Of a DNA stretch of 64,000 nucleotides, positions 16,222 through 34,120 are shown piece by piece. The stretch is from Erwinia persicina (lineage in GTDB: Bacteria; Pseudomonadota; Gammaproteobacteria; Enterobacterales; Enterobacteriaceae): NCBI RefSeq assembly GCF_014838825.1, contig NZ_JACYMO010000004.1:268402-332401 (forward strand), given 5' to 3'. Every line of letters starts with the position of its first letter. Position 1 is the first letter of the stretch. Both the position numbers and the translations under genes were made by a program. The notes under the pieces were generated by a model. It searched no databases, was not told the DNA's origin, and worked only from the letters and a program-made list of their open reading frames with translations.

Positions 16222-16224
16222 CCG

Positions 16225-20893: not shown

Positions 20894-20921
20894 CAAAAAC
20901 CAGGGCGGGCACGAACCCGCC
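20894..20921 (-). terminator. Terminator after ogr
   Basis: GGCGGG / CCCGCC stem (20904-20921) followed on the minus strand by CTGGTTTTTG. Marks the left edge of the tailocin unit. Confidence 0.8.
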
Positions 20922-20928
20922 GCTGGGG

Positions 20929-21147
20929 TTAGCTGCCAAGACGGCTGGTACGGGTTTTCACCGCTGCCGGTGGCGGCGTGGTGGCCTCCACCGGCCGGGC
21001 CACAATTCCGGTAATACTCTCCATCGATTTAAAGGTACAACTGCAGTTCAGATTCTGGCACTGGTGATAGCGTTCCTTGGTCTCACTGCTGAGGATCCGG
21101 CTGGAACGGGCATGGCTGTTATGCTGGCAAATCGGGCAAGGCATCAT
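20929..21147 (-). CDS. ogr: Late-gene activator, Ogr/Delta/B-type zinc-finger protein
   Basis: A 72-residue homologue of P2 Ogr and 186 B. The motif CPICQH...ARSSR...TKERYHQCQNLNCSCTF supplies the four zinc cysteines (about residues 4, 7, 31, 36). These proteins bind TGT-N12-ACA sites about 55 bases before late starts and contact the RNA polymerase alpha subunit. ATG 21147 follows GGAGG at 6 bases. Two matching sites occur in this locus, at 26674 and 32603. Its own promoter carries CI-type operators (21175-21226). Confidence 0.93.
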   Translation of the reverse strand: MMPCPICQHNSHARSSRILSSETKERYHQCQNLNCSCTFKSMESITGIVARPVEATTPPPAAVKTRTSRLGS

Positions 21148-21174
21148 GGCTGACCTCCACTGGTCATCAGTTAA

Positions 21175-21226
21175 ACTCACACATTGTGAATTTAACTAAT
21201 TATATTCACTTAAAGTGAATCATCAA
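21175..21226 (-). promoter_or_regulatory. ogr promoter with two dyad operators
   Basis: Minus-strand -35 TTGATG (21221-21226), 16-base spacer, -10 TATAAT (21199-21204). The spacer is filled by ATTCACTTAAAGTGAAT (21204-21220), a near-perfect palindrome. A second dyad ACTCACACATTGTGAAT (21175-21191) covers the start region. Both fit ATTCAC-N5-GTGAAT. In phage 186 the CI repressor shuts off pB, the promoter of the Ogr homologue B, so these are likely CI operators. Confidence 0.75.
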
Positions 21227-22362
21227 GTGGTTTTTTCACTTCCCGTGACATTATTCGGTTTAACGTCAATGTCCCAGGTTTCACCACCCACCGATTTTTC
21301 CAGGTTCACCGTTGTACGAAATCCATTATTATCAATCACATGATTCACTTTGATTATTGTCCACTGTTGGGCATCAATCATCGTTTTGAACCCGCTCAAC
21401 CGTATCGGTGTTTCCGGTATCAACACTGGCATTCCCTGAGCAATCACAAAACTCATGCTCGCGGTCATCGCCTGGCGTTTCTTCCAGTCAGCCTTCGCGG
21501 CGTCCATCGCCTCTTCCTGGGTTTTAAATACCCCAGGTATCTGAGCATAACGTTCATAAAGCGGCTGCGGGATGTCCTGTCTGGCCGTGCCGGGAAAACG
21601 CTCGGGTTGGTTTTCAGGGATGACTCGGAACACTCTCACCGTGCCACTGCTGGCTTTATCGAGCTGCATCCATTTGGCCTTAACGCCACTAAAATGCATC
21701 TGTGATACCACCTGATAATCATGCTTATCACCGTCTTTACGTGTGAGCAGGAGTTGTGGGATCGCCAGCCCACTGACGGTTTTGTTCGCCCCCCGTACCA
21801 GCATCAACACTTTGTCCTTCTTGATCGTGACCGTTGCACCATATTTTGTTGCCATGGTGGTCAGAAACTGTGCGTCGGTAAGACCACTCTGATCTTCATG
21901 ATCAATCTCAATTGAGGCCAGTTCACCAGCAACTTCTGCCCCAAGTTCATTGCGTTTCGCAATCTGCAATACCATGGCCCCCAGCGTGGTCTTATCGTAT
22001 GAATGGTTTCCCTTTTCCATTAACGAATCACTCAGATTGGCGCTGCGCCCGACCAGCTTCAACTGATCGGGAGCACCGCTGTGATGCAACTCATCAATAA
22101 CAAAATCCCCTTTGCAGAACAGTGGCCTGCCCTGCCAGCCGATATACACCCGCAGGATAGCGCCACGCTGCGGCATCATGAGCCTGCCATCACTGTCATC
22201 CAGTAACAGCGTCAGCGCGTCAGCTTCTAAACCGCGAGCATCATCAATGGTCAAACTCAGCAGGCGTGGCCGCAGGTTCTCAGTGATATCCAGATTATTG
22301 AGTTGAATCAGATAGTCAGGTGCCAACGGCGCACCGATATCCACCGGTAAACTGTTATTCAT
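21223..22362 (-). CDS. D: Phage late control protein D (tail hub / baseplate)
   Basis: A 379-residue homologue of P2 gpD (387 residues), the hub at the tail tip that joins tube and spike, similar to T4 gp27. Diagnostic stretches are PDYLIQLNNLDITENL near the N-terminus and SLTIDDARGLEADALTLLLD following it. It overlaps U by four bases and its 3' end carries the -35 of ogr. Confidence 0.92.
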   Translation of the reverse strand: MNNSLPVDIGAPLAPDYLIQLNNLDITENLRPRLLSLTIDDARGLEADALTLLLDDSDGRLMMPQRGAILRVYIGWQGRPLFCKGDFVIDELHHSGAPDQLKLVGRSANLSDSLMEKGNHSYDKTTLGAMVLQIAKRNELGAEVAGELASIEIDHEDQSGLTDAQFLTTMATKYGATVTIKKDKVLMLVRGANKTVSGLAIPQLLLTRKDGDKHDYQVVSQMHFSGVKAKWMQLDKASSGTVRVFRVIPENQPERFPGTARQDIPQPLYERYAQIPGVFKTQEEAMDAAKADWKKRQAMTASMSFVIAQGMPVLIPETPIRLSGFKTMIDAQQWTIIKVNHVIDNNGFRTTVNLEKSVGGETWDIDVKPNNVTGSEKTT

Positions 22363-22832
22363 ACGATGCTCCCTGCCAGGGTTGAGACCTGGGAACTCAC
22401 ATTGCCGTAAATTCGCTCCGCCTGCTGCTTGAGATCACCAAACATGGCACTTCTCGATTCATCGACTCGTTTCAGTTTTAGCGTAAAATTGATCTTCCGA
22501 GCCGTGCCGTTTTCCAGTAAGTCAGCATGCACACCGTTGATATTTTCAATGACAAACATGCCATAAAGAAATCCTTCACCATTGAGTAAAGGCCATGCCT
22601 GCCCCGCTTCTGCTATATCCATCAGCGCCGCCAACGCAGGAGCTCCCCCGGTGATTTCCGGGCGCAACTCACCCTGCAACGTGATGTTTTCTTCGCCGAC
22701 ACCCAGAAACTGTTGTGCCGGGCGAGTACCAATACGGCTGCCCGCTGCCCAACGATACGCACTTTCCTGCGTCATCGTCTGAAATGGCAAAGTGCGACGT
22801 TTAAAAATAAACATACCGAGTATCATCATCAT
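22359..22832 (-). CDS. U: Phage tail protein U
   Basis: A 157-residue homologue of P2 gpU (159 residues), a tail-tip assembly protein. The segments LGMFIFKRRTLPFQTM and RIGTRPAQQFLGVGEENITL match. The start with three Met codons aligns with P2 U. Lies between T and D with tight spacing. Confidence 0.92.
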   Translation of the reverse strand: MMMILGMFIFKRRTLPFQTMTQESAYRWAAGSRIGTRPAQQFLGVGEENITLQGELRPEITGGAPALAALMDIAEAGQAWPLLNGEGFLYGMFVIENINGVHADLLENGTARKINFTLKLKRVDESRSAMFGDLKQQAERIYGNVSSQVSTLAGSIV

Positions 22833-22835
22833 GGT

Positions 22836-24368
22836 TTATTGCCCCCAGAAGCTGCTGCGTTGGTTGATAGCAGCACGCGCCTGCGTTTGCTGCTGATGGT
22901 TGTCGATCATCGTGCGAACCTCCGCTTCCCCCATACCTGTAGGAACGTTGATCACATAGCTGCTGTTAAAGGTGTTCTGCTGGCTGTTGCTGGTGCTGGT
23001 GCTGGACGCTGTAACGGGTTGATAGCGGGCACCGCCAAAGGCGACAGGTGCGGGAGTATCCGGCGCAGCAAAGTCTGCGCCCCCCAGGGCGACCGAGGGA
23101 CGCTGTGCTGACGGATCGTCACTCAGCGAGGTTTCTGCATCGGCCGCTTTTTTATCGGCTAACCCAAGCTTTTCCAGCAGCCAGCTGACTTTTCCACCGA
23201 GCGTACGTAAAATCGTCAGGGGCAAACTCAATCCATTTACCAAAGCCTCACCGACAAAACGCCCAAGATTCCCCAGCTGCTCCAGCTTCTGCGCCGTCAT
23301 TTCAATCGGTGAGAAAAACGCCTTTATACTGTCAAAAGCACTGTCAATCTGCTTACCTGCCTCATCAAAAATGACCGTTAACGGTTTAAATGCGTCGAAT
23401 AGTGGCGTCAGCACAGCGCTGATCCCTTCAACCACCCCGCCAAAGAACGCGCTGAGCGGCTCCCAGTACTGGTAAATCAACGCAGCAGCGCCGACGATAG
23501 CGGCAATGGCTATACCGACAGGCAACGTGATCGCCCCCAGCGCCGCAGCGATCGCCCCACCAGCAAAAGTAAACACGCTACTCAGGATCCCAGCGCCCGC
23601 CATCAACAGATTCAGGCCACTGAGTACTGGCACCACCACAGAACCGATCCCGCCGAGTGCGGCAATCAGCAGCCCGCCCCCCGCCACCAGTTGGGTGATC
23701 CCGCCCGCCAGCGTGGAGTTGTCCTGGATCCATTGATCAACGCCGGTTAATAGCCCAGTGGCGGTCTGCGTCAGGGAACGCAGCGTACCGTCCAGTTGGG
23801 TAAACACTGTCAGGCTGATGCTGTCGATCGCGGCATTAAGCTGGCCGATATCCCCTGCGAGGTTATCGGCGGCGGGCATGGCGATTGCGGACGGCGGGCG
23901 GACATCAGACGATGTTGCCGCCTCCTTTGGCGGCGCGCCCGACCGTGCCGTCATCACCTGATAGCCCGGCTGCAGCAGCTTCGCCCCCTGGCGCGCCACG
24001 CCCATCGCCTGGCTGCTGACCGCACCGATTTTATCCACCACGCCCTGCCCGGTCTGAAAGCGCTGCTGCACCTTGCCTTGCCCGAGCTGAAAGCGCTGCT
24101 GTGCTTTATTAAGGTTATTTCTGACACGCTGCGGGCGCTCATGCGCCTCGGTCACGCGGATCACCTGCAGGCGTTCCCTGCTGGCGTCGAGTGCGGATTT
24201 ACTGTTGCGCGTTGCTGCCCGGGTACGTTCGGCGCTGGCCCTCAGCGCCACGCGCTGCTGAAACATCGCAAGGCCGAGGGACTGGGTTTCCCCCGGCAGA
24301 TCGTTTAAAAACAGGTTCGCCCGGATCACCGCTTTGCGCAGCCCATCCAGACCGAGGTTAATACTCAT
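22836..24368 (-). CDS. T: Tail tape-measure protein T (short form)
   Basis: 510 residues. N-terminal charged, coiled-coil-rich part (about 20-130, many Gln/Arg/Ala), a central Gly/Ala-rich hydrophobic block (about 225-300) and a C-terminal part ending in QARAAINQRSSFWGQ. Position after E/E' and before U defines it as T. P2 gpT has 815 residues, so this one is about 60% as long. Tape-measure length sets tail length, so a shorter tail is expected. ATG 24368 overlaps the E' stop (TGATG); a GTG one codon earlier is possible. Confidence 0.88.
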   Translation of the reverse strand: MSINLGLDGLRKAVIRANLFLNDLPGETQSLGLAMFQQRVALRASAERTRAATRNSKSALDASRERLQVIRVTEAHERPQRVRNNLNKAQQRFQLGQGKVQQRFQTGQGVVDKIGAVSSQAMGVARQGAKLLQPGYQVMTARSGAPPKEAATSSDVRPPSAIAMPAADNLAGDIGQLNAAIDSISLTVFTQLDGTLRSLTQTATGLLTGVDQWIQDNSTLAGGITQLVAGGGLLIAALGGIGSVVVPVLSGLNLLMAGAGILSSVFTFAGGAIAAALGAITLPVGIAIAAIVGAAALIYQYWEPLSAFFGGVVEGISAVLTPLFDAFKPLTVIFDEAGKQIDSAFDSIKAFFSPIEMTAQKLEQLGNLGRFVGEALVNGLSLPLTILRTLGGKVSWLLEKLGLADKKAADAETSLSDDPSAQRPSVALGGADFAAPDTPAPVAFGGARYQPVTASSTSTSNSQQNTFNSSYVINVPTGMGEAEVRTMIDNHQQQTQARAAINQRSSFWGQ

Positions 24369-24804
24369 CACAACTCTCCACTCTGTGTACCGCTACGCAC
24401 AATGGCCTTATGCCGCCAGTCGAGCAGTTCTGCCAGCGACATGGCGTTCATTTCCGACGGCGACCAGTGAAAGATGGCGGCGATATCCGCCATCAGATCC
24501 TCTACCGTCAGGCCGTTGGGCCAGCGGACGTGTCCGGTTTCGCGGACAAAAAACCGATCACCCGTCCGCCCAGCTCAATCAGATCGACCGGGTCGAGATT
24601 GAGGCATTCCGATTTGGTCAGGTTCGGCAGCGTGATACGCGGCAGAACAGTGATCAACGCGTCAACGTCCGATCCGGCCAGATCGACCAGACGCGTACCG
24701 CGCAGCGTGCCGGCGTTGGGTTTAATCAGTTCCACGCTGTTAATCACGGTGTCGCCACGCACGATCGGCGTGACCAGCTGGAGGGTATTTTCTGCTTGTG
24801 ACAT
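24368..24804 (-). CDS. E': Tail assembly chaperone E+E' made by -1 frameshifting
   Basis: gpE reads in frame from 24804 to 24508. A -1 slip at TTTTTTG lets ribosomes continue in the E' frame to a stop at 24368. The added part contains VRWPNGLTVEDLMADIAAIF and HWSPSEMNAMSLAELLDWRH, as in P2 E'. The extended protein is a scaffold for the tape measure. No separate start codon is needed for E'. Confidence 0.85.
24508..24804 (-). CDS. E: Phage tail protein E
   Basis: 98 residues, P2 gpE type (91 residues in P2): TLRGTRLVDLAGSDVDALIT and LPRITLPNLTKSECLNLDPV. The most abundant product of the E/E' pair; ends shortly after the slippery site. Confidence 0.9.
   Translation of the reverse strand: MSQAENTLQLVTPIVRGDTVINSVELIKPNAGTLRGTRLVDLAGSDVDALITVLPRITLPNLTKSECLNLDPVDLIELGGRVIGFLSAKPDTSAGPTA
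24547..24553 (-). promoter_or_regulatory. -1 ribosomal frameshift site
   Basis: TTTTTTG in the E frame (GGT TTT TTG), the same heptamer type used in P2 E/E'. Confidence 0.82.
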
Positions 24805-24865
24805 AAGCGTTCCTTTACGGGTAAAGCGGGTCGGATATGCCCGACTCCTGCGGGGTATGCAATTA

Positions 24866-24885
24866 GGGGCGGGTCTGCCCGCCCC
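24866..24885 (-). other. GC-rich hairpin between FII and E
   Basis: GGGGCGGG / CCCGCCCC stem with a 4-base loop, no T-tract. It may protect the FI-FII message or reduce read-through into the less needed E-T-U-D genes. Confidence 0.5.
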
Positions 24886-24911
24886 CTGCGGTTACGTCAT
24901 TACGGGACGGG

Positions 24912-25421
24912 TTACACCAGGCCGATGTTTTTACGGTGCCCGGCCAGGCGGTCGACACCATTCACTATCTCGACCATGTTCACAGTGTCGATTTCGATCA
25001 GCGGTTTACCGTTCCAGGTCAGCTTGTAATAGGTGCATTTGGTGGTGATTTTGGTTTCACTCTCCTCACCCTGCTTACTTTCACCAAAATCGAACTGCTG
25101 ATGCTTGCCGCGCAGTTCCACCTCCACTGCGATGGTCTCGTCGGTGTCGTCACGCTGGTAAGATCCCATAAAGCGCAACGGCACCGTTGCCCCGCCCCAC
25201 TGGGTAAGGATGCGATCGTCGAGTCCGGCAAGGGTCCATTCAAGATCCAGCGCATCGTCTTCCAGACCGTTATCAATGTGCGCCACGCCGTTCATGCCGC
25301 CGCCGCGATAGGGATCCAGCTTGCGCGCCAGTTTCGGCAGCGTCAGCGAGGTCACCACGCCCTGGTAGCTGTTAGCATCGTTGAATAAATTCAGGTATTT
25401 CAGTTTCTTGGGCATTGCCAT
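24912..25421 (-). CDS. FII: Tail tube protein FII
   Basis: 169 residues, close to P2 FII (172): MAMPKKLKYLNLFNDANSYQ at the start, RFMGSYQRDDTDETIAVEV in the middle, and VNGVDRLAGHRKNIGL at the end. Forms the inner tube that is driven through the target envelope. Confidence 0.94.
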   Translation of the reverse strand: MAMPKKLKYLNLFNDANSYQGVVTSLTLPKLARKLDPYRGGGMNGVAHIDNGLEDDALDLEWTLAGLDDRILTQWGGATVPLRFMGSYQRDDTDETIAVEVELRGKHQQFDFGESKQGEESETKITTKCTYYKLTWNGKPLIEIDTVNMVEIVNGVDRLAGHRKNIGLV

Positions 25422-25433
25422 GGGGTTTTCTCC

Positions 25434-26603
25434 TTAGCGGTTCACAGAAGCGGCGAAGTTCGCCAGGTAGCTGTCGGTAATACGCTGACGCAGCGTCAGA
25501 TCTTCCAGCGGCGGCACCGGGGTGTAGTCGTAGTCGATATACAGCTTGCCGGCTTTCAGGCTCTCCTGATTATTGGCGCTTTCGTCGTACCAGCAGTTGG
25601 CGCCCAGCAGGTAACCGGCGTTGATCAGCTCGCGGAATTTCGCGTTGATGCCGGCGATGATTTCGCGCACCAGCGTGGGCGTCAGCGGTTTGTCGTTGGC
25701 CCACATATGCGCATCGGCCATGGTGTCGGCAATCACCTGCGCCGAGCGGGTGTAGTTCTCGAAGGCGAACAGCGGGTCATCGCTACAGGTGCGGTTGCCC
25801 CAGAAGCGGAAGCCGTCTTTGCGGACCAGGGTGGTCACGCCGGCTTCGTTCAGCAGGTCGGCATCGGTACCGGTCTGCTGCAGATCCCAGAATACCGAGG
25901 CGTTAACGCCAGTGACGCCGTTAACGCCAACGTTGGACAGGGTCTTATGCCAGCCGGTGTCGTTGTCAATTTTGGCGCGCAGTCCAAGCGCCCGCGCCGT
26001 CGCCCAGGCGGTGTCGGCCTCGCTGGTAAGGGTGTTCCAGGCCACAAAATCTGGCCAGATCACCATCAGCTCACGCTGGCTGAAGTTATCGCGATACTTG
26101 ATGGCCTCAGTCAGGGTCTTGCAGCCGTAAGCCGAGATATAACCGAACGCACGCAGCTGCTGGCACACCGAGGCCAGGGCGGTAGCGACCTCCAGCGAGT
26201 CCAGCCCTGGCACGCCAAGAATGCGCGGCTTAACGCCGAGGTCAGTCTGCGCACTCAGCAGCGCTTTCATCCCGGTATAACGCCCGTTCTCGTCCGTGCC
26301 GCCGATAATGTTGCTGGTCGTCTCAGCGGCGTCTTTACCTTCCGCTACGCGCACCACAACGGTCACCGGCTTACTCTGGTCGGCAATCGCACGCAGTGAC
26401 TGTGCCAGGGTACCCTGGGTACCGGCTTTACCCAGCGCGGCCAGGACATCAGTGATCAATACCGCCGTATTCAGCGGGAAGGTGGTGGCATCGGCATCTT
26501 CTGCAGTACAGATCATGCCGACGATGGAAGTGGAAACCGCTGAGATGCTGCGGGTTCCGTCATTCACTTCTACGACGCGTACGCCGTGGTGGTAATTTGC
26601 CAT
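25434..26603 (-). CDS. FI: Contractile tail sheath protein FI
   Basis: 389 residues, like P2 FI (396). Opens MANYHHGVRVVEVNDGTRSI and contains SKPVTVVVRVAEG, a sheath-fold insertion domain and the conserved C-terminus LRQRITDSYLANFAASVNR. ATG 26603 is chosen after an AGGAG site; the longer open frame to 26636 lacks one. First gene of the FI-FII-E-T-U-D unit, preceded by an Ogr box. Confidence 0.94.
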   Translation of the reverse strand: MANYHHGVRVVEVNDGTRSISAVSTSIVGMICTAEDADATTFPLNTAVLITDVLAALGKAGTQGTLAQSLRAIADQSKPVTVVVRVAEGKDAAETTSNIIGGTDENGRYTGMKALLSAQTDLGVKPRILGVPGLDSLEVATALASVCQQLRAFGYISAYGCKTLTEAIKYRDNFSQRELMVIWPDFVAWNTLTSEADTAWATARALGLRAKIDNDTGWHKTLSNVGVNGVTGVNASVFWDLQQTGTDADLLNEAGVTTLVRKDGFRFWGNRTCSDDPLFAFENYTRSAQVIADTMADAHMWANDKPLTPTLVREIIAGINAKFRELINAGYLLGANCWYDESANNQESLKAGKLYIDYDYTPVPPLEDLTLRQRITDSYLANFAASVNR

Positions 26604-26673
26604 CTTTATTGCACTCCTTTGTTGGGGTGAGGTCATGATGACAAGAAATTAACGGGCGGGCATGCGATGGCCG

Positions 26674-26693
26674 TTGTGGGGCGCAGGGGACAA
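26674..26693 (-). promoter_or_regulatory. Ogr box before FI (late promoter)
   Basis: TTGT-N12-ACAA, an exact extended form of the P2 late-promoter element TGT-N12-ACA. Its centre (about 26684) is 80 bases before the FI start codon, which leaves room for a start site 55 bases downstream of the box centre. Confidence 0.82.
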
Positions 26694-26775
26694 CGCAACA
26701 CTTAAAAAGTTAATATAAACAGGTAGTTAAAAAGATAAAAAACCTGTTCAACGAAGACAGAATGTTTTAAAAAAC

Positions 26776-26811
26776 AAAAAAAAAGCGCCCCTGCCTGTCA
26801 GCAGAGGAGCT
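26776..26811 (-). terminator. Terminator after the tail-fibre gene
   Basis: Imperfect GC-rich stem (AGCTCCTCTGC / GCAGGGGCGCT) followed on the minus strand by nine T. Separates the X-to-H operon from the FI operon. Confidence 0.88.
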
Positions 26812-26847
26812 CTTCATTAAACGTGCGATAAGGCGGAAAACAGCGTA

Positions 26848-28161
26848 CTACGCGCTGCGATACCAACCCATTAACTTGATAAAACTGTTGGTAATGGCCA
26901 ATGCCGCGCCCGACCCCGTACTGGCGGTGGTACCGGAAACGGTGTGGGTGTGGGCTCCGATACCAACGGTATGAGTGTGAGCGCCAATAGCGACTGTGTG
27001 AATATGAGCACCGGCAGCAGTTGTTGTTTGAGTAATATAACTCGCATCCGTTGTACTAATGAATGAAAGCTGGGTTTTATTGCCTTCCTTATTCCGACCG
27101 CTAATCGTATGAGTATGTTCCCCTGTACTGTTGGTGCTTTTACTACCATAGTCAAACGTACTGGTCGGCTTAGTTCCATAATCAAACGAACTGGTTGTCC
27201 CCGAGAAGGTGTGGTTATGCGCGGGCAAATTCGCCACCGACAGGCTGACCGCATCCGCGCCACCGGTAGTAAAGGCATCGCTCCCGTCCGCTTTTGCCAG
27301 GCGAATGGTTCTGTTTTCACCAATATATTTCCACGTCGTGCCGGGGAATAACGTATTCGGGTTTTTATTCTGGGCAAACCAGGTGACGATCCCGACCGGA
27401 TAGATCTCGTTCAGAACGTTGCGGTTAGCCAGATCGTATGCGGCTTTCACCGCTTTTGGTGTCGCAGCCTGCGTTTCACTGCTGCTGTTGGTGGCGCTGC
27501 TCAGCATTACCACCCCCTTTGCCGCGAGCGTGGCATCAGGCTGAGTGCGGTTAGCCAGGTCGTAAGCCGCTTTTACCGCTTTTGGTGTCGCAGCCTGCGT
27601 TTCACTGCCGCTGTTGATAGCGCTGCTCAGCATCACCATTCCCTTCGCCGCCAGCGTGGCATCAGGATGATTACGGCTCTGTTCATGGCTGGCAATGCGC
27701 AGATTGACATACTCTTCGGTAGCAAAGATCAGACTGTCATCCAGCGTCAGGGCAATTGCTTCACTGCTGCTGACCGCCAGCACCATACGCAGAGTCTGCG
27801 TTCGTCCTGATCCCTCCTCCAGCGCCGGCTTATAGGTCTCGGCCATATTACTTACCGCCAGCAGCGTGCCGTCTCCCGCCAGAAGGCCCAGCTCACGCAT
27901 CCAGAACCCACCAGCGCTGGCCGGGATAATGGTTTCAATCACCAGCCAGTTTTTATGGCTGCTCTCCACCTTGACCGAATTGACAGCCTGACGGTACACC
28001 TCATGCACCAGTCCGGTCTGCCCCGGCAACGGCGTGGTCGGCTGACCGCTGCCGTCACCGACCACCATGGTTTTGATATCGACCTGAGTACCACCCTGCA
28101 TCGCTGCGGCGATGCGCGCCTGTCCTGCCGTAGTCACGACAGATTTAAATTTTAACGCCAT
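26848..28161 (-). CDS. H: Tail fibre protein H-type with Gp10-like collar tip
   Basis: 437 residues. Residues 1-150 match the P2 gpH N-terminus that attaches to the baseplate (VTTAGQARIAAAMQGG, GGFWMRELGLL). Then two near-identical tail-fibre repeats (LAAKGMVMLSSAINSGSETQ and its copy, about 180-260). The C-terminal part (YPVGIVTWF...FPGTTWKYIGENRTIRL) resembles T4 gp10 / collar-type tips and has repeated HxH motifs (HNHTFSG, HTHTISG, HIHTVAIGAHTHTVGIGAH). P2 H has 669 residues, so the shaft is shorter. No chaperone gene G follows. Determines which strains are killed. Confidence 0.9.
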   Translation of the reverse strand: MALKFKSVVTTAGQARIAAAMQGGTQVDIKTMVVGDGSGQPTTPLPGQTGLVHEVYRQAVNSVKVESSHKNWLVIETIIPASAGGFWMRELGLLAGDGTLLAVSNMAETYKPALEEGSGRTQTLRMVLAVSSSEAIALTLDDSLIFATEEYVNLRIASHEQSRNHPDATLAAKGMVMLSSAINSGSETQAATPKAVKAAYDLANRTQPDATLAAKGVVMLSSATNSSSETQAATPKAVKAAYDLANRNVLNEIYPVGIVTWFAQNKNPNTLFPGTTWKYIGENRTIRLAKADGSDAFTTGGADAVSLSVANLPAHNHTFSGTTSSFDYGTKPTSTFDYGSKSTNSTGEHTHTISGRNKEGNKTQLSFISTTDASYITQTTTAAGAHIHTVAIGAHTHTVGIGAHTHTVSGTTASTGSGAALAITNSFIKLMGWYRSA

Positions 28162-28171
28162 GTAAAACCTC

Positions 28172-28699
28172 TCACGCGGGGAAAATCGTAACCGTTTCAG
28201 CGTCATACTGAACGGCACCTGTCCAGACAATGCCCTGAATATCCTGGGTGATCGTCAGGGCGGTTAAATGACGGCTGACGGCTTTTGCATCCGCAATCAG
28301 CCGCTCCATCTCGTTAAACATCGCTTCATCAATACCCGACTCCAGCACGCCAATTTCCAGGCGAAACGTGCCCGGCGGCTCCTGGTTCTGCCACCATTCG
28401 GTGATGTTGATGACATAACCCAGCGGCTCGACCACGCGCCGGATCGCGGCGATGGTGCCCTTACGGCGGTGAACGAACTGTGCGGACGCCACCACGGCAC
28501 GCTTTGTCTCCTCCGGCCAGGTCTGATCCCAGCGGTCAACGGACCAGGCCCAGGCCAGATAGGGCAACAGCGCGACCGGACAGGTCTGCGGGTTCCACAG
28601 GGTGCGCAGCGGCACCGGTAACTGCTGAAGATGGGCGCAGGCTTCGGCGGCAGCCACCTCCAGTGGCGACGATCCGGCGGGCAGCAGACGATCACTCAT
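28172..28699 (-). CDS. I: Phage tail protein I (baseplate)
   Basis: 175 residues, P2 gpI type (tail wedge that connects fibre to baseplate). Contains LRTLWNPQTCPVALLPYLAW and AWSVDRWDQTWPEETKRAVV. ATG 28699 overlaps the end of J by 8 bases. Confidence 0.92.
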   Translation of the reverse strand: MSDRLLPAGSSPLEVAAAEACAHLQQLPVPLRTLWNPQTCPVALLPYLAWAWSVDRWDQTWPEETKRAVVASAQFVHRRKGTIAAIRRVVEPLGYVINITEWWQNQEPPGTFRLEIGVLESGIDEAMFNEMERLIADAKAVSRHLTALTITQDIQGIVWTGAVQYDAETVTIFPA

Positions 28700-29600
28700 C
28701 GGAGCCTCCCACACGGATCCGGTGGCCGGTACACCAGCCTGCCTGGGTTTTATCCAGCACCACGTCGCGTGCGGGCTGAGTCAGCTCCACTCGTTGCACC
28801 CCTTCAACGTGCAGCGCAGCAAACAGCGCCGACTGGCGGATATCGCGCCCCAGACGGCTCTGGGCGGTGACAAAGGCAGCCAGCCGCGCTTCTGCCGCCG
28901 CGCGGATGGGTTCCGCTTCCGGGCCGGGATAGAGGTACAGCGTGGCATCCACGCTGTACTCCACGATAGCCGCCGACCGCACGCTGACGCGGTCAGCGAC
29001 CGGGCGGACATTTTCATCATTCAGCGCGATATTGACCGCCGCCAGCACCTCCGCACTGGCCTCGCCACGACCTTCGCGTGACAGCACAGTGATCAGCACT
29101 TCTGCCGGGGCCGGACTGGTCGCACTGACATCAGCCACCCGCCCGTCAGCGCTGCGGGCGTGGTACTCATAGGCCCCACCCGGACCGGCCACGCTCAGTC
29201 CCTCAAAAGCCTGAGCGATACGCAGACGGAAATCGTCGTCGCTCTCAAGTAACGCGGGTACGGTTGGCCGGGTACTGTTATCAGCGGGCCTCAGGACCAG
29301 ACGGGTCACGCCATTGTTGATACCGAGCTGGTCGAGATCGCTTCCCGTCGCGAAGGCCACCATCGTGCCTTTCGCGGCCTCATTAATCCGCTGCCGCAGG
29401 ATCAGTTCGCGATAGGCATTCTCCTCCAGCAGCTTAACAATGGGCTCAGACTCCAGTTCAAGAGTGCGGGTGATGACCGCCTGCTGATCGGCCGGATAGA
29501 GCGCAATCAGACGGGTTTTACGCGCCTGAAGCAGCGTTTCAAAATCCAGCGCTTCGACGATGTTCGGCGCAGGTAACTGACTTAAATCAATGGTGGCCAT
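28692..29600 (-). CDS. J: Baseplate assembly protein J
   Basis: 302 residues, the same length as P2 gpJ. N-terminus DLSQLPAPNIVEALDFETLL, with QRINEAAKGTMVAFATGSDL and LDQLGINNGVTR. Forms the baseplate wedge with W and I, like T4 gp6. Confidence 0.93.
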   Translation of the reverse strand: MATIDLSQLPAPNIVEALDFETLLQARKTRLIALYPADQQAVITRTLELESEPIVKLLEENAYRELILRQRINEAAKGTMVAFATGSDLDQLGINNGVTRLVLRPADNSTRPTVPALLESDDDFRLRIAQAFEGLSVAGPGGAYEYHARSADGRVADVSATSPAPAEVLITVLSREGRGEASAEVLAAVNIALNDENVRPVADRVSVRSAAIVEYSVDATLYLYPGPEAEPIRAAAEARLAAFVTAQSRLGRDIRQSALFAALHVEGVQRVELTQPARDVVLDKTQAGWCTGHRIRVGGSDE

Positions 29601-29605
29601 AGTAG

Positions 29606-29950
29606 TTAACTCACTGGAATGGATAAGGAAAAAGTGGACTGATTGCTGGTACCGCTCAACGCGACCTCCATGCGGCCGTCAAGACCCGGCTGGTAGCTGA
29701 TGCTGTCGAGGGTGATGCGCGGCTCCCAGCGCAGCAGCGCCATGTAGCAGGCTGACATAATCTGCAGACGCAGCGTCTCGTTCTGCGGCTGGTCGATCAG
29801 CGCCGACAGCAGCGATCCGTAGTCGCGGCGCATCACCCGTGATCCCTGCGGGGTCAGCAGAATATCGCGCACCGACTGGCGAATATGATCGCTGTCTGCC
29901 AGTGATAGCCCGCTGTCGCGCTGCATACCTGACCAGGTTGCTGTATTCAT
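29606..29950 (-). CDS. W: Baseplate wedge protein W (gp25-like)
   Basis: 114 residues, P2 gpW type (115). Contains SVRDILLTPQGSRVMRRDYG and PRITLDSISYQPG; gp25-like lysozyme-fold baseplate protein without enzyme activity. ATG 29950 overlaps the V stop by one base. Confidence 0.92.
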   Translation of the reverse strand: MNTATWSGMQRDSGLSLADSDHIRQSVRDILLTPQGSRVMRRDYGSLLSALIDQPQNETLRLQIMSACYMALLRWEPRITLDSISYQPGLDGRMEVALSGTSNQSTFSLSIPVS

Positions 29951-30540
29951 CACTGTGGCCCCGCTGTTTTGCTGCCACCGCTCTCGACACCCGCGTGAAC
30001 GTGGCTGTGGACGACGATACCGTTCGAAGAGAAGCTGCCGCCGCTGTGGCTGATCGTGCCCTGTAGCGTGCCCCCCTCGCTGAGCACAAAAGTTTTCGCC
30101 TTCAGCTGCTGAGTGCACTCCACCAGCGGGCTGTCGAGGGTGATTTTTACCGCCGCCCGGATGCTGGCCGACTGGATACCGCTGGCTGTCAGCGCACCGC
30201 TCTGCGGTTCGTAGGCGATTTGCGCCCCGTCCGGGAACTGCCAGCACACCGCATCCTGCGATGCCGAAGGCGGCGGGAAGGCATCGGAGAAGATCCCCGG
30301 CAGCACAAAGGCGGTGGTCAGTTCACCGCTCAGCGCCAGCAGCAGCACCTGCTCACCCGGCGAGGGGGCATGCCAGCTGCGAACCTGGCCCGCGCTGCTG
30401 CTCAGCCACGGCAGCCAGCCGGTGAGGTTGCCGTCGCTCTTTACCCGGCATCGCGCCCGGGGAAGATCGACCTCGCTGACCGTACCGATGCGCAACAGGT
30501 TGTTGAGCTGGCGGCGGGTTTCCACGACAAATTCATTCAT
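29950..30540 (-). CDS. V: Baseplate spike protein V
   Basis: 196 residues, P2 gpV type (211). OB-fold N-terminus (LLRIGTVSEVDLPRARCRV), then a beta-rich shaft, and a C-terminal HSHVHAG iron-binding type tip followed by a short tail. This is the membrane-piercing needle. ATG 30540 follows AAGGAG. It comes 19 bases after R: P2 gene S is missing between them. Confidence 0.93.
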   Translation of the reverse strand: MNEFVVETRRQLNNLLRIGTVSEVDLPRARCRVKSDGNLTGWLPWLSSSAGQVRSWHAPSPGEQVLLLALSGELTTAFVLPGIFSDAFPPPSASQDAVCWQFPDGAQIAYEPQSGALTASGIQSASIRAAVKITLDSPLVECTQQLKAKTFVLSEGGTLQGTISHSGGSFSSNGIVVHSHVHAGVESGGSKTAGPQ

Positions 30541-30559
30541 TGCGTACTCCTTCTGGCTT

Positions 30560-31018
30560 TCAGACTGCAGGCCATTCACTGACCAGCTGATGGTTGATAT
30601 AGAGCTGCCACGGGCGGGACACGGCTTCCGGCACCGCTGGCTCCGGCAAATGGGTCACACTCAGGGCCCCGTCGCTTTCGCTGACCAGCACGCGCTCGGT
30701 CAGCGGGATCACCAGGCTGAAGTCGCCGTTAACGCTGCTGCTGAACACCATGCCGTTTTCACGTCTGGCCGCCGTGGTCATCAGGTCGGGTTGATTTTCC
30801 CGCAGCCACAGCAGCAGGGAGACCACCAGGGCATCCCGGTCGTCGCCGGCGTCGCTGACGGTAATGCGCAGCGGGTACTGGTATTCAAAACTCAGTGAGG
30901 CTGCGGGCGTACAGACCACCCTGCCCTGCTCCAGCGAAAGGGTCAGCCGTTCAGGGTGATTCTGCAGGTCGGGTACGCGGGCCAGTAAGGCCTCGCGCAG
31001 TCGTTTGGGTTTTAACAT
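30560..31018 (-). CDS. R: Tail completion protein R
   Basis: 152 residues, P2 gpR type (155). Opens MLKPKRLREALLARV; contains LLLWLRENQPDLMTT and RPWQLYINHQLVSEWPAV at the end. gpR finishes the head-proximal end of the tail, so it is kept in a headless particle. ATG 31018 has AGGAG at 7 bases; the previous codon is also ATG. Confidence 0.92.
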   Translation of the reverse strand: MLKPKRLREALLARVPDLQNHPERLTLSLEQGRVVCTPAASLSFEYQYPLRITVSDAGDDRDALVVSLLLWLRENQPDLMTTAARRENGMVFSSSVNGDFSLVIPLTERVLVSESDGALSVTHLPEPAVPEAVSRPWQLYINHQLVSEWPAV

Positions 31019-31265
31019 CATGTTGCTCCTGACACTGTTTAAGGGTTTCGACTTGCAGGCCGCACGTCAGCAGCGCCTGCTCCAGCTGGCGGATCGCCGT
31101 CAGCAGATCCCCCTGCGTCTCTGGCTGAACCGCCGGTACCGGACAACTGCTGATGACGGGACAACCACGCCAGATAATCACTGGCGGTGGCGAAAGCGGG
31201 GTGCTGCTGCAGCCGGATAATCCCGTCAGGCAGAGCAGCATGGCTCCAGTTTTGTAGTGCCTCAT
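30951..31265 (-). CDS. lysC: Outer spanin Rz1-like lipoprotein (LysC type)
   Basis: 104 residues starting MRHYKTGAMLLCLTGLSGCS: a signal peptide with lipobox LTGLSGC, then a Pro-rich segment (TPLSPPP). It lies in another frame inside the Rz gene and extends past it, as Rz1 genes do, and it also overlaps the start of R. With Rz it joins inner and outer membranes in the last lysis step. Confidence 0.82.
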   Translation of the reverse strand: MRHYKTGAMLLCLTGLSGCSSTPLSPPPVIIWRGCPVISSCPVPAVQPETQGDLLTAIRQLEQALLTCGLQVETLKQCQEQHDVKTQTTARGLTGPRTRPAESP

Positions 31266-31542
31266 TGCTGTGCAGGACCCTCTGATCGTTGACATATTGT
31301 TTCAGGGTGATATCGCCGGCCCTGAGCAGGGACTGGCGCAGCGTGCGCTCGGCCTCGGCCTGGCGGGAGATATCCGCTTTCAATTGCCTGATGACGGCGT
31401 TTCGCTGATCCAGCCCCGCGTGGAGCACGGCGTTACGCTGCTGCAGTTCGATGCGCTCACGGTACAGAATGGCCAGCCAGCGCCCGCCGCCGCCCAGCGC
31501 GATCAGCAGCACCAGCGCCAGGGTTATCCATAATCGGGTCAT
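31039..31542 (-). CDS. lysB: Inner spanin Rz-like protein (LysB type)
   Basis: 167 residues starting MTRLWITLALVLLIALGG: an N-terminal membrane anchor and a long coiled-coil (about 30-85, rich in Gln/Arg/Leu). Holds the embedded Rz1 gene. Starts 4 bases within the endolysin end. Confidence 0.83.
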   Translation of the reverse strand: MTRLWITLALVLLIALGGGGRWLAILYRERIELQQRNAVLHAGLDQRNAVIRQLKADISRQAEAERTLRQSLLRAGDITLKQYVNDQRVLHSNEALQNWSHAALPDGIIRLQQHPAFATASDYLAWLSRHQQLSGTGGSARDAGGSADGDPPAGAGAADVRPASRNP

Positions 31543-32048
31543 CCCACCCCCTTCATGCACAGGGCGCGTTCAGCGTTTCTTCGCGCCTCAATTCCCTTAT
31601 TACGTACGCCCGCGACATACACCCAGCGCATCAGCTGGTCGCACGCTGCCCGCCACTGCTGCTGATTGATCAGCCGGGCATAGGTGGAGCGACAGACCGC
31701 GCCCACGCCGACGTTAAAGGCAAAGGAGACGGTGGCGTCCCAGACCCCCTGCGGCATCGTCACCTGCAGGCAGCGGGCGATACCGCGCTCTACCCGCTGT
31801 ACGTCGTCAATCAGATTGACCGCTACCTGACGTTCACTGACCGTCGTCACGGGCGTCACCCCCCGGGTATGGCCGATACCGTTCGTCCAGACGCCCGCAC
31901 TGCACTGATACGGTGATGTCCGGCAGCCCTCAGCCCTGGCCAGCAGCTGCAGGCCCTCGCCGGAGATCTGCAACGTGGAGAACGACGGCAGCGTGACGGC
32001 CAGCGCCAGTACGGCCAGCACCGCACATTTTTTAGCGGGTGAATTCAT
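31539..32048 (-). CDS. Endolysin, GH24 lysozyme with SAR-type N-terminus
   Basis: 169 residues. A weakly hydrophobic N-terminal segment (about 9-27, many Ala/Leu/Thr/Ser) fits a signal-arrest-release helix. The catalytic set reads E-x8-C-x5-T (EGCRTSPYQ C SAGVW T, about 40-55); C replaces the usual D, a variant known in the P21/P1-like group. VWDATVSFAFNVGVGA follows. Cuts peptidoglycan to release particles. Overlaps the holin gene by 17 bases. Confidence 0.9.
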   Translation of the reverse strand: MNSPAKKCAVLAVLALAVTLPSFSTLQISGEGLQLLARAEGCRTSPYQCSAGVWTNGIGHTRGVTPVTTVSERQVAVNLIDDVQRVERGIARCLQVTMPQGVWDATVSFAFNVGVGAVCRSTYARLINQQQWRAACDQLMRWVYVAGVRNKGIEARRNAERALCMKGVG

Positions 32049-32259
32049 CTTCGCTCCCGTTTCTCTGTCGCTGTTGCCACAACCGCCAGGTCTTACGGCG
32101 GTAATGCCAGTTGATAAAGAAGTTCGCGATGTTGATGCACAGCGTCACCACAGCCACCAGCGCACCCACCATAAAGGCGATGTCCTGTACGGTGTGCCGG
32201 CTGGCCCACATCATCATCACACTGGTGAAATAGCCGATCAGTGAGCTGCTTTTCTCCAT
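32032..32259 (-). CDS. Holin
   Basis: 75 residues with two hydrophobic parts (about 7-20 and 28-50, AFMVGALVAVVTLCINIANF) and a highly charged C-terminus (HYRRKTWRLWQQRQR). Size, order and neighbours (X before, endolysin after) mark it as the holin or pinholin that triggers lysis. Confidence 0.82.
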   Translation of the reverse strand: MEKSSSLIGYFTSVMMMWASRHTVQDIAFMVGALVAVVTLCINIANFFINWHYRRKTWRLWQQRQRNGSEDEFTR

Positions 32260-32262
32260 CGG

Positions 32263-32466
32263 TCAGCTCCACAGATTGAGCGTTTCGTGGGTGGCAGAAA
32301 GGGAGAGCGACGGAAGCTCAATCGGATAACCGTGAGGCAACCGGGCTCCCTGTTCAGCCAGTCCGCGATTCGCGGCATAAACGGCTTCCACCACCTGCCG
32401 CGTGCGGCCATAGTGGCGAAAACAGATCTCATCGACGCAGTCATCCTGCAGGGCATAAATTTTCAT
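32263..32466 (-). CDS. X: Tail protein X (LysM-like)
   Basis: 67 residues, same length as P2 gpX. MKIYALQDDCVDEICFRHYG, then ANRGLAEQGARLPHGYPIEL and a final NLWS. First gene of the late lysis/baseplate operon, 3 bases before the holin. In P2 it follows the head genes, which are absent here. Confidence 0.93.
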   Translation of the reverse strand: MKIYALQDDCVDEICFRHYGRTRQVVEAVYAANRGLAEQGARLPHGYPIELPSLSLSATHETLNLWS

Positions 32467-32602
32467 TTTTCACTCCCCCGTAGCGGGTATTACGCTGACA
32501 GAAACGGCCGGGAAAGAGGTTGGGGTGATGACTTCCGCTTCCCAGTGCCGGGTAATCTCAACCAGTGTGCGTTCTCAACTTATGGCGCTCAATTGGGGGG
32601 TG

Positions 32603-32622
32603 TTGTAAGGCGAGTGTGACAA
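32603..32622 (-). promoter_or_regulatory. Ogr box before the X-to-H operon (late promoter)
   Basis: TTGT-N12-ACAA, the same form as the box at 26674. It lies about 147 bases before gpX and downstream of the terminator at 32696, so the operon starts here. The dyad is symmetrical; the gene order shows it serves the minus strand. Confidence 0.82.
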
Positions 32623-32695
32623 CGTGAAGCGCCCTGGCCGGGGCGGATACGGCCTGTATTCATTGGCAGGCGGCGGTACGGCGGGGGCAACAGGC

Positions 32696-32721
32696 AAAAA
32701 AAAAGCCTCCGTCAGGAGGCT
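32696..32721 (-). terminator. Terminator after the LexA-controlled small gene
   Basis: AGCCTCC / GGAGGCT stem with a 4-base loop, followed on the minus strand by nine T. Isolates the small gene from the late operon. Confidence 0.92.
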
Positions 32722-32819
32722 TCAGCAGAACAGGATGCAGGGGGGAATATCATGTCCAGCCAGACAGCGATCGGCGTCTCCGGGCGACAGAGGACACCCG
32801 GAGCCTGTGCTGATAAACG

Positions 32820-33011
32820 TTAACGTTCAGGTTTGTGGGGGGAAAAGACGACCGAGAACTGGGCGTTTTTCAGCTCTATACCGCTGGCAATATCGGCGAT
32901 CAAAAGCAGCGCTATTTCACGGTCACGCTCCCTGCAAACCCCTTCAGAGGTTAATCTTGCTATCAGTTCCACGCGTTCCAGAATCACGCTTTCGGCTAAT
33001 TCTTTGTCCAC
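32820..33011 (-). CDS. SOS-controlled small protein, candidate CI antirepressor (Tum-like role)
   Basis: 63 residues, GTG start at 33011 with a GGGGGAG site. I do not recognise the family. The sequence is mostly helical and charged in the first half (ILERVELIARLTSEG, then RERDREIALLLIADIASG). Position gives the role: a LexA box overlaps its promoter and a strong terminator follows, so it is the only product of an SOS-induced transcript in a locus with a 186-type CI. In phage 186 the LexA-controlled Tum protein inactivates CI. It does not resemble DinI in sequence. An early-phage leftover of no function is the alternative. Confidence 0.62.
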   Translation of the reverse strand: MDKELAESVILERVELIARLTSEGVCRERDREIALLLIADIASGIELKNAQFSVVFSPHKPER

Positions 33012-33027
33012 AACTCCCCCTTCATTT

Positions 33028-33047
33028 CACTGTACGTATATACAGTA
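33028..33047 (-). promoter_or_regulatory. LexA (SOS) box over the small-gene promoter
   Basis: CACTGTACGTATATACAGTA on the plus strand: CTG-N10-CAG with an AT-rich alternating core, close to the LexA consensus. It directly follows a minus-strand -10 TATGAT (33047-33052), so bound LexA would block transcription of the 63-codon gene. Confidence 0.9.
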
Positions 33048-33466
33048 TCATAGCACTTACCAATAAGAAAAGTTTTTTACGCGTACCAGCAACAATCTTT
33101 ATCACACTGATAATTATCAAAATAATCCGTCACATCCCCTTTAGGGATGTCTGCCACCTCTGCGGCTCTCTTGCCTTTATTTCGGGTCATCAGCGTGAGG
33201 TTGTCATGTTTAAAAAAGGGCTTCAACGCCGCTTAATTAATTAGCGTGGCTCATCTGGATGCCGCGCACAGCGGGGCGCTGTGCATTATTCACTAAAGAT
33301 GAATTGCGGGTCTGGCATGACGAAAACGGCGGGTTTTCGGGTTGTAAAAATGACCATAATCGGGCAAAATCTACGCTAATCCTTATGCTCTCCACCCTGA
33401 CGTGCCCATAAAGCTACAATAATATTTGCGCACTCCCCAAAAAATGAAATCACCAGGAGTATGAGA
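33048..33466. other. Regulatory intergenic region before cI
   Basis: About 400 bases with no gene. Contains a GCACAGC / GCTGTGC hairpin (33266-33284), the CI-type dyad at 33288-33304 and a -10-like TACAAT (33415-33420). A DNA remnant of lost early genes is possible. Confidence 0.5.
33288..33304. promoter_or_regulatory. CI-operator-like dyad upstream of cI
   Basis: ATTCACTAAAGATGAAT agrees with the ogr-promoter palindrome (21204-21220) at 14 of 17 positions and keeps the outer arms. It suggests that CI also controls its own region. Confidence 0.55.
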
Positions 33467-34081
33467 GTGAGCCTGAAAATCGACTTTCAGAACGGCGCAA
33501 AAGAGGTGCTGGATCGTGTCCTCCAGGCCTACGGATTTACCACGAAGCTGGCGCTGGCTGAACATCTGGGTATTGCCAGTAGTAGCCTGGCTAATCGTTA
33601 TTCACGCGGCCATTTTCCCTCAGACATCGTGATCCGCTGCATGGCGGATACCCATGCCACGCTGCAGTGGCTGGCGACCGGCCAGGGAGAGTCGCCGTCT
33701 GCCACCCCGGGGAACGATGGCCCACGGCCTTCCACCGCCGGGCATGGCCAGTCGCTGCCCCGCCAGCGGCTGGACGGCGGGAAACTGACCGACCTGGCTG
33801 ACATGACGCTGGAAGCCGCCTTCTTTGAAGGCTGGTCCGTCGCCCCCGATCGGCCGCTGATGGTGATTGACGGCCAACAGCAGTTCATCGCCGAGCAGAC
33901 GTTCAGTGAGATCCAGGACGGTGACTGGCTGGTGTCGCTGGAGGGCCAGATCAGCGTTCGCAGCCTCACCCGTATTCCGCCAGGACGTGTGCGGGTGGCC
34001 AACGGCCAGCAGCAGTTCGAGTGCGGGCTGAACGAAATCATCCCGCTGGCCCGCATCGTGATTGCCTGCCGCCCGGTGTAA
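33467..34081 (+). CDS. cI: 186-type CI repressor
   Basis: 204 residues. N-terminal phage CI helix-turn-helix: VLDRVLQAYGFTTKLALAEH followed by LGIASSSLANRYSRG, closely like 186 CI, then LQWLATGQGE. A Pro/Gly/Gln-rich linker (about 80-105) leads to the C-terminal oligomerisation domain (IQDGDWLVSLEGQISVRSL, VANGQQQFECGLNEI). 186 CI is not cleaved through RecA but is inactivated by Tum. GTG 33467 has AGGAG at 7 bases; ATG 33461 is too close to it. Faces away from the tail genes and ends at a perfect hairpin. Confidence 0.92.
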   Translation: MSLKIDFQNGAKEVLDRVLQAYGFTTKLALAEHLGIASSSLANRYSRGHFPSDIVIRCMADTHATLQWLATGQGESPSATPGNDGPRPSTAGHGQSLPRQRLDGGKLTDLADMTLEAAFFEGWSVAPDRPLMVIDGQQQFIAEQTFSEIQDGDWLVSLEGQISVRSLTRIPPGRVRVANGQQQFECGLNEIIPLARIVIACRPV

Positions 34082-34093
34082 AGGCTGCAGAGA

Positions 34094-34120
34094 AATAAGG
34101 CCACACCCTGTGGCCTTATT
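34094..34120. terminator. Bidirectional terminator
   Basis: Perfect 12-bp stem AATAAGGCCACA / TGTGGCCTTATT with a 3-base loop; A-rich on one side and T-rich on the other, serving cI and the convergent SulP gene. Confidence 0.9.

What the first reader, a model, noticed from the sequence alone, without database searches (positions are those of the whole stretch)
20894..34120. A selectively trimmed P2-type element: probable R-type tailocin
Seen: X, holin, endolysin, Rz/Rz1, R, V, W, J, I, H, FI, FII, E/E', T, U, D and ogr in P2 order, all frames intact. Absent: Q, P, O, N, M, L, S, G, integrase, excisionase and replication genes. Known: contractile bacteriocins (pyocin R, xenorhabdicin, carotovoricin) derive from such elements. 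Inference: this locus makes tail-like particles that kill related strains and are released by lysis.
Basis: partly seen in the sequence, partly recalled or inferred. Interest (0 to 1): 0.95.

Follow-up and report, generated by a model that had tools for sequence, protein, structure and literature searches.

The report
Headless phage-tail weapon of Erwinia
An Erwinia bacterium carries an intact set of phage-tail and cell-lysis genes without phage-head genes beside them, likely a weapon that would be switched on by DNA damage and is predicted to release short contractile particles that kill related bacteria.

Summary
The finding holds. Head genes, S, G, integrase and gpA are absent; the genome gave no P2 capsid, portal or Terminase_6N match. 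Five of 37 Erwinia genomes carry the locus, mostly under purifying selection; between this strain and E. persicina only the fibre tip differs strongly among tail genes. Predicted control: LexA box, Tum-N, CI, ogr promoter, two Ogr boxes, conserved in all five. Among 43 comparable Enterobacterales loci, S and head gene L are lost together; the tape measure is under 700 aa in 19 of 22 headless loci and 0 of 16 headed ones measured, shortest here (495-511 aa). All 21 headless loci showing gene X have a LexA-type box 421-925 bp before it. Headless loci fall in several tree clades. In a sixth Erwinia the tail genes are gone but lysis genes and switch remain. Verdict: a new, compact member of the P2-type R-tailocins (nearest: pantailocins); killing is untested.

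The parts
33461..34081 (+). CI repressor (Phage_CI_repr + Phage_CI_C; no peptidase S24 match)
   Evidence: Pfam; PHROG
33289..33303 (.). CI-operator-like palindrome TTCATCTTTAGTGAA between CI and Tum-N (function inferred)
   Evidence: a TTCA[CT]N5[GA]TGAA match between CI and Tum-N in 6 of 6 Erwinia loci compared
33030..33045 (.). LexA-type box CTGTATATACGTACAG, start 34 bp before the Tum-N start codon
   Evidence: only CTGTN8ACAG in the window
32820..33011 (-). 63-aa Tum-N, matches the first 60 residues of 186 Tum; lacks the DinI domain
32603..32622 (.). Ogr box TTGTN12ACAA upstream of X (late promoter 1, inferred)
32263..32466 (-). X, tail protein X
32032..32259 (-). holin
   Evidence: phrog_20; Pfam below cut-off
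31539..32048 (-). endolysin (phage lysozyme)
31039..31560 (-). Rz (likely starts at the internal ATG)
30951..31295 (-). Rz1/LysC
30560..31021 (-). R, tail completion/terminator
29950..30579 (-). V, spike (likely starts at the internal ATG; the G004 frame starts there)
29606..29953 (-). W, gp25-like baseplate wedge
   Evidence: scanned as the longer frame 29606-30247
28692..29600 (-). J, baseplate wedge
28172..28714 (-). I, tail protein I
26848..28161 (-). H, tail fibre, 437 aa from ATG; tip with GxHxH motifs resembling T4 gp37
26674..26693 (.). Ogr box TTGTN12ACAA upstream of FI (late promoter 2, inferred)
25434..26636 (-). FI, sheath (real start probably ATG at 26603, 389 aa; inferred)
24912..25421 (-). 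FII, tube
24368..24804 (-). E (24508-24804) and E' by a -1 shift at TTTTTTG 24547-24553 (shift inferred)
22836..24371 (-). T, tape measure, 511 aa
22359..22832 (-). U
21223..22362 (-). D, baseplate hub
21176..21226 (-). ogr promoter (pB-like, read by eye): TTGATG-N16-TATAAT with palindrome TTCACTTTAAGTGAA in the spacer and a second, TTCACAATGTGTGAG (CI operators by analogy with 186 pB)
20929..21180 (-). ogr, late activator (zinc finger)

Best explanation
The locus encodes a complete contractile P2/186-type phage tail with lysis genes but no head genes, and likely works as an R-type tailocin: a particle predicted to be induced by DNA damage, released by lysis and able to kill related Erwinia. 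Shown in sequence: gene content, open frames, absence of head genes from the locus, conserved regulatory sites, purifying selection on most genes, variable fibre tip. Inferred steps: DNA damage would remove LexA from its box; the 63-aa Tum-N antirepressor would disable the CI repressor; the ogr promoter, whose spacer holds a CI-operator-like palindrome, would fire; Ogr would activate two late promoters (upstream of X and of FI); tail proteins would assemble on a short tape measure; holin, lysozyme and spanins would lyse the cell; the H fibre tip would select the target and the sheath drive the tube through its envelope.
For: Genes. No head genes in the locus, no P2 capsid, portal or Terminase_6N in the genome. 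Same locus in 5 of 37 Erwinia genomes by CI of at least 66% and sheath of at least 90% identity. dN/dS window vs E. rhapontici 0.04-0.37 for 13 tail genes. Fibre: 315 of 319 shaft residues identical to E. persicina but 33 of 73 in the tip. Switch: one CTGTN8ACAG, two TTGTN12ACAA and one TTCACN5GTGAA in 64 kb, each at the expected promoter, with counterparts in the five loci. Tum-N matches 186 Tum 1-60 without its DinI domain; PMC3121763 passages (54) cite, as a personal communication, antirepressor activity in the upstream half of the split tum of PSP3. S and L lost together: 22 S-minus loci, none with L in view. A LexA-type box 421-925 bp before X in 21 of 21 headless loci that show X (74, 75).
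Against: No particle, expression or killing data. LexA and Ogr patterns alone are not rare (shuffled windows reach the observed numbers in 46 and 14 of 100; 68, 66), and a looser TGTN12ACA has three further matches inside the locus; the case rests on position and conservation. H has no G-type chaperone gene next to it. Only three head families were searched in the genome. Spanin genes show weak constraint (dN/dS 0.65 for Rz1 vs E. rhapontici, 0.85 for Rz vs E. aphidicola; 49). Action of Tum-N on this CI is inferred from 186.
Confidence: 0.82

Rival explanations
1. A decaying P2/186 prophage remnant with no present function; the open frames are simply recent.
For: It derives from a phage family; the same chromosomal neighbourhood holds a complete prophage in one Erwinia (G026), is empty in others, and holds a tail-less remnant in G020; spanins Rz/Rz1 show relaxed constraint.
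Against: Same gene content in five Erwinia genomes with dS up to 1 and more, dN/dS mostly below 0.2; regulatory sites conserved; the genes missing relative to ENT90 and 186 are head, S, G, integration and replication genes.
Confidence: 0.1
2. A helper-dependent phage or satellite whose tail is completed by head genes elsewhere.
For: Headed ENT90-like prophages occur in other Erwinia (G016, G026).
Against: No P2 capsid, portal or Terminase_6N in the own genome; no integrase or gpA match in the window; S, which accompanies L in all 16 S-plus loci where L could be looked for, is missing.
Confidence: 0.03
3. An extracellular contractile injection system delivering an effector rather than a bacteriocin.
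For: Same sheath-tube architecture.
Against: The 20 proteins of the locus match P2 tail, lysis or regulatory families; no cargo or AAA ATPase family among them.
Confidence: 0.03

Closest known systems
Pantailocins (Pantoea ananatis, P. stewartii subsp. indologenes)
   Same: Six headless Pantoea loci: P2/186-type tail, S and L not found, Tum-N with LexA box, ogr, lysis genes; in the four looked at at full length, a CI repressor, then SulP/carbonic anhydrase, on one side and a tRNA-Met(cat) on the ogr side. P. allii islands are described between rpoD and sulP (PMC12873547 passages).
   Different: All six Pantoea loci have gpA, some have G, T is 653-820 aa; the core tree does not group them with the Erwinia clade, the D+U tree groups P. 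ananatis alone with it at 0.8. They are genome-collection contigs, not the two strains of the original paper, which is not held.
Phage ENT90 and phage 186 (Peduoviridae)
   Same: Gene order, sheath 83% (ENT90) and 73.5% (186) identical, CI, Tum N-terminus with LexA box; 186 pB operators and B-site layout.
   Different: The phages have heads, S, gpA and integrase; T is 825 and 812 aa; 186 Tum also has a DinI domain.
Xenorhabdicin
   Same: P2-type tailocin locus with OgrK, CI and a gene annotated DinI (PMC13280938 passages).
   Different: Hypervariable region between sheath and fibre. Xenorhabdus loci found here, taken by me as xenorhabdicin-like: sheath 68-70% identical, T 1096 aa in L042 and 602 in L059.
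Dickeyocin P2D1
   Same: Headless P2-type tail locus with reported killing (PMC10719855 passages).
   Different: 22-kb cluster, stated there to lack the tape-measure protein; the Dickeya oryzae locus L023 found here has a T frame of 681 aa.

Membership tests
R-type tailocin | contractile sheath, tube, baseplate, spike, fibre genes intact | tested here: met
R-type tailocin | no capsid, portal, terminase in locus or genome | tested here: met
   locus; genome only for PF05125, PF04860, PF03237
R-type tailocin | lysis cassette for release | tested here: met
R-type tailocin | DNA-free particles that kill bacteria | not testable with these tools
   needs induction, microscopy, spot tests
P2/186-derived tailocin | closest to the Peduoviridae tail module | tested here: met
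186-type SOS switch | LexA-controlled antirepressor, CI, CI-operator ogr promoter, Ogr boxes | tested here: met
   sequence level only:
186-type SOS switch | Tum-N inactivates CI in vivo | not testable with these tools
   needs reporter assay
Pantailocin | monophyly with Pantoea headless loci | tested here: inconclusive
   core and lysis-gene trees against, D+U tree weakly for P. ananatis only
Pantailocin | island flanked by rpoD and sulP | tested here: inconclusive
   SulP and tRNA flanks shared; rpoD was not searched for and none was noticed in the window ORF list
R-pyocin / carotovoricin | own lineage and PrtR/RdgA-type cleavable repressor | tested here: inconclusive
   CI shows no S24 peptidase match; pyocin and carotovoricin sequences not compared here; regulator names recalled
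extracellular contractile injection system | AAA ATPase and cargo genes | tested here: not met
   none among the 20 scanned proteins

The most novel reading that the evidence does not exclude
Headless tails have been made several times from 186/ENT90-type prophages by the same edits (head module and S lost together, tape measure usually cut by 15-40%), while an SOS switch is always kept: a LexA box driving a protein of about 60 aa just upstream of the tail operon, a Tum-type antirepressor in Erwinia, Pantoea and Siccibacter and a diverged one in Kosakonia. The Erwinia clade is the most reduced and builds the shortest particle, and in one species the weapon itself has been shed, leaving a stand-alone DNA-damage-triggered lysis cassette.
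Probability: 0.4. Interest if true: 0.65.

Novelty: new member of a known kind. Interest (0 to 1): 0.45.

Why it matters
It extends P2-type tailocins to a clade of plant-associated Erwinia, for which the paper listings seen here show no tailocin report (PMC library only, longer lists seen in part). It gives a base-level, testable wiring diagram for induction by antirepressor rather than repressor cleavage, a quantitative prediction for particle length, and a comparative rule (S lost with the head, tape measure usually shortened, LexA box before X) that could help tell tailocins from prophage remnants in genome annotation.

Tried and rejected
Scars of deleted head genes: the gap between Tum-N and X in 5 loci was compared in six frames with O, L, N, M and P proteins of ENT90 and 186; nothing exceeded the mean of 60 shuffles by 3 sd. 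DinI identity of the 63-aa protein: rejected, no Pfam family up to E 1, while 186 Tum has DinI at 87-145. Attachment-site remnant at the tailocin edges: the tRNA at 8443-8519 matches the 186 att stretch (50 of 51); other matches in the window are 10-15 bases, none at the tailocin edges. Single origin of headless loci: not supported by the trees. Spread of this CI: of 295 family genomes sampled, 10 reach E 1e-45, and apart from the own genome none exceeds 51% identity; the high-identity Erwinia genomes do not appear there, so that sample does not measure the genus. Against tape-measure shortening: three headless Pantoea loci have 819-820 aa, and Xenorhabdus L041/L042 have 1077 and 1096 aa frames but lie outside the 43-locus count, as do L050 (519) and L016 (288, possibly broken). 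Against a Tum-type switch everywhere: Tum-N is found by homology in 13 of 22 headless loci; in 8 Kosakonia/Enterobacter loci the LexA box is followed by a 61-65 aa frame with no BLAST match to Tum, and L023 does not show the region. Stops: tblastn spans of H (E. persicina, E. rhapontici), Rz (E. aphidicola, G004, G020) and V (G004) contained in-frame stops; for H and V they lie before the likely ATG, and the Rz frames run 202, 202 and 150 aa.
Full report
WHAT IS THERE. Between a dipeptidase gene beside pqq and a SulP transporter/carbonic anhydrase pair lie 20 genes: on the minus strand Tum-N, X, holin, lysozyme, Rz, Rz1, R, V, W, J, I, H, FI, FII, E (with E' by a -1 shift), T, U, D, ogr; on the plus strand CI. 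No match in the window to S, L, M, N, O, P, Q, gpA, integrase or G (tblastn with ENT90 and 186 proteins). In the whole genome: 0 matches to the P2 capsid, phage portal and Terminase_6N families, and one Phage_sheath_1 match, this one.

RELATIVES. The best matches in named genomes are Erwinia persicina (sheath 99%), E. rhapontici (94%) and E. aphidicola (90%). A sixth, G020, has CI (76%) and no sheath match at all. The five have the same tailocin genes. Against E. rhapontici dN/dS is 0.04-0.37 over 13 tail genes (highest T), 0.09 lysozyme, 0.16 holin, 0.36 Rz, 0.65 Rz1, 0.19 CI, 0.11 Tum-N, 0.06 ogr. Against E. aphidicola Rz reaches 0.85, so the spanins are little constrained.

SITE. In five other Erwinia genomes (G002, G015, G018, G031, G032) the dipeptidase and SulP matches lie 77-124 bp apart; four of these gaps were read and hold no gene: an empty site. 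In E. aphidicola and G004 the tailocin is beside the dipeptidase but SulP is elsewhere. The window's tRNA-Met(cat) at 8443-8519 matches the 186 attachment stretch in 50 of 51 bases. In four Pantoea genomes the headless locus lies between such a tRNA and SulP, in the same order and orientation, and in Erwinia G026 a complete ENT90-like prophage does. That the tailocin arose from such a prophage is an inference.

SWITCH. The window holds one CTGTN8ACAG (33030), two TTGTN12ACAA (26674, 32603) and one TTCACN5GTGAA (21205). Shuffled windows reach these numbers in 46, 14 and 6 of 100, so single patterns prove little, and the looser TGTN12ACA has three further matches in the locus. But the first lies 34 bp before Tum-N, the pair before X and FI, and the last between -35 and -10 of the ogr promoter, and counterparts recur at the same places in all five tailocin loci (57 bp before the FI match in all five, 139 or 156 bp before X; ogr palindrome TTCACTTTAAGTGAA or TTCACTTAAAGTGAA). 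The 186 ogr-type promoter pB, annotated with two CI sites, reads TTCACAAAAAGTGAA and TTCACGAATTGAGAA. The 186 B sites themselves read GTTGTN12CCA, so the match to the Ogr consensus (recalled) is closer here than in 186. The Ogr box before FI is about as far from the likely start of FI as the B site of 186 is from J (my arithmetic). The 63-aa protein, called DinI by PHROG, has no DinI domain; it matches the first 60 residues of 186 Tum, whose DinI domain is at 87-145. Passages of PMC3121763 say that Tum binds its repressor, that its second half resembles DinI, and, citing a personal communication, that in PSP3 the upstream half of a split tum has the antirepressor activity. One search lists 20 distinct loci or phages with a match at E 1e-3 (repeat rows set aside; most of the other subjects, many of them short there, have none): 18 have a protein matching the Tum N-terminus with a LexA box 34-41 bp before the start, 186 with full-length Tum among them; the two Xenorhabdus rows (L042, L059) are different or partial. 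Of the 22 headless loci counted below, 13 have Tum-N by homology; all 21 that show X have a CTGTN8ACAG 421-925 bp before it, and in the 8 Kosakonia/Enterobacter loci without a Tum match it is followed by a 61-65 aa frame. Whether that frame is a diverged Tum-N is a guess from a short shared stretch seen by eye.

FIBRE. H has a P2-type N-terminus, repeats and a tip with GxHxH motifs; by sequence it matches the T4 gp37 tip structure 2xgf at E 6.4e-11 over residues 304-410. Against E. persicina the shaft is identical in 315 of 319 aligned residues and the tip in 33 of 73; against E. rhapontici 186 of 231 and 19 of 77, against G004 256 of 319 and 52 of 85. The other tail genes are 96-100% identical between window and E. 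persicina. E. aphidicola L003 has a different H (47%) and was left out of that alignment. No G-type chaperone lies in the 215 bp between H and FI.

COMPARATIVE RULE. The loci are the best 80 of 131 by sheath match plus three unnamed Erwinia and the window. Of 63 Enterobacterales loci examined, 43 show both R and V. S is absent in 22 and present in 21. None of the 22 has L in view (X is visible in 21); all 16 S-plus loci with X visible and at least 348 bp upstream have L; L029 has only 65 bp of room and four more do not show X. T could be measured in all 22 S-minus loci (495-820 aa, 19 under 700) and in 16 of 21 S-plus loci (809-975 aa, none under 700). Three Pantoea loci (819-820) are headless but not shortened. 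Loci are related, so these are not independent counts; in the core tree of 50 loci the headless ones fall in several places (Erwinia; P. ananatis beside ENT90 at 0.73; P. septica group; L060/L011 beside headed L014 at 1.0; Kosakonia/Siccibacter; Dickeya; Xenorhabdus), but some deep supports are low; the lysis-gene tree puts the Erwinia clade beside headed Mixta L008 at 0.94. The window's T aligns well to 186 T 481-808, weakly to 113-212 (score 80 against a maximum of 68 in 100 shuffles), so mostly the middle has gone.

THE STRIPPED RELATIVE. G020 keeps ogr, its operators, Rz (ending about 23 residues early), Rz1, lysozyme, holin, the Ogr box, Tum-N, the LexA box and CI with open frames; all other tail genes gave no match and X is a short remnant by eye. 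Its lysis genes show dN/dS of 0.12 (holin) and 0.16 (lysozyme) against E. rhapontici, which includes time before the loss. Whether it still lyses cells is unknown.

LITERATURE. Seen as passages: PMC12873547, PMC12090994, PMC10719855, PMC13280938, PMC3121763, PMC9650351 on E. persicina genomes, whose main text holds no 'tailocin' or 'prophage' (62). The pantailocin paper PMC10870728 is not held; nothing of it was read. Listings only. The 135 nm P2 tail length, the Ogr consensus and the pyocin/carotovoricin regulators are recalled.

VERDICT. It is a new, compact member of the P2/186-type R-tailocins; the induction circuit, short tape measure and stripped relative are the parts worth a specialist's attention.

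Noticed in passing
L163 (G020) about 14591-19075: Tail genes lost but lysis genes, CI, Tum-N, ogr and their sites present with open frames; no sheath match in that genome: possibly a stand-alone SOS lysis cassette.
   Followed up: partly
window 8443-8519: tRNA-Met(cat), probably tRNA-Ile2, matches the 186 attachment stretch in 50 of 51 bases, 12 kb from the tailocin.
   Followed up: partly
L024, L025, L026, L030, L031, L036, L037, L038, upstream of X: Headless Kosakonia/Enterobacter loci have a LexA-type box followed by a 61-65 aa frame with no BLAST match to Tum; a possible second family of small SOS antirepressors.
   Followed up: partly
window 32820-34081 versus E. persicina L004: CI and Tum-N have dS 0.32-0.44 while the tail genes except H (0.45) have 0-0.07: repressor and antirepressor seem exchanged or evolving together.
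   Followed up: no
window 21223-22832 versus E. rhapontici L002: D and U have dS 0.08 while FI and FII have 0.60-0.75: probable recent recombination.
   Followed up: no
G004 locus (L170), oriented 9752-9990: Terminator-like unit GCTTCGGCGGGGTTTTTTG repeated three times at 112-bp steps next to CI.
   Followed up: no
L041, L042 (Xenorhabdus): Unusually long tape-measure frames of 1077 and 1096 aa, against the shortening seen elsewhere.
   Followed up: no
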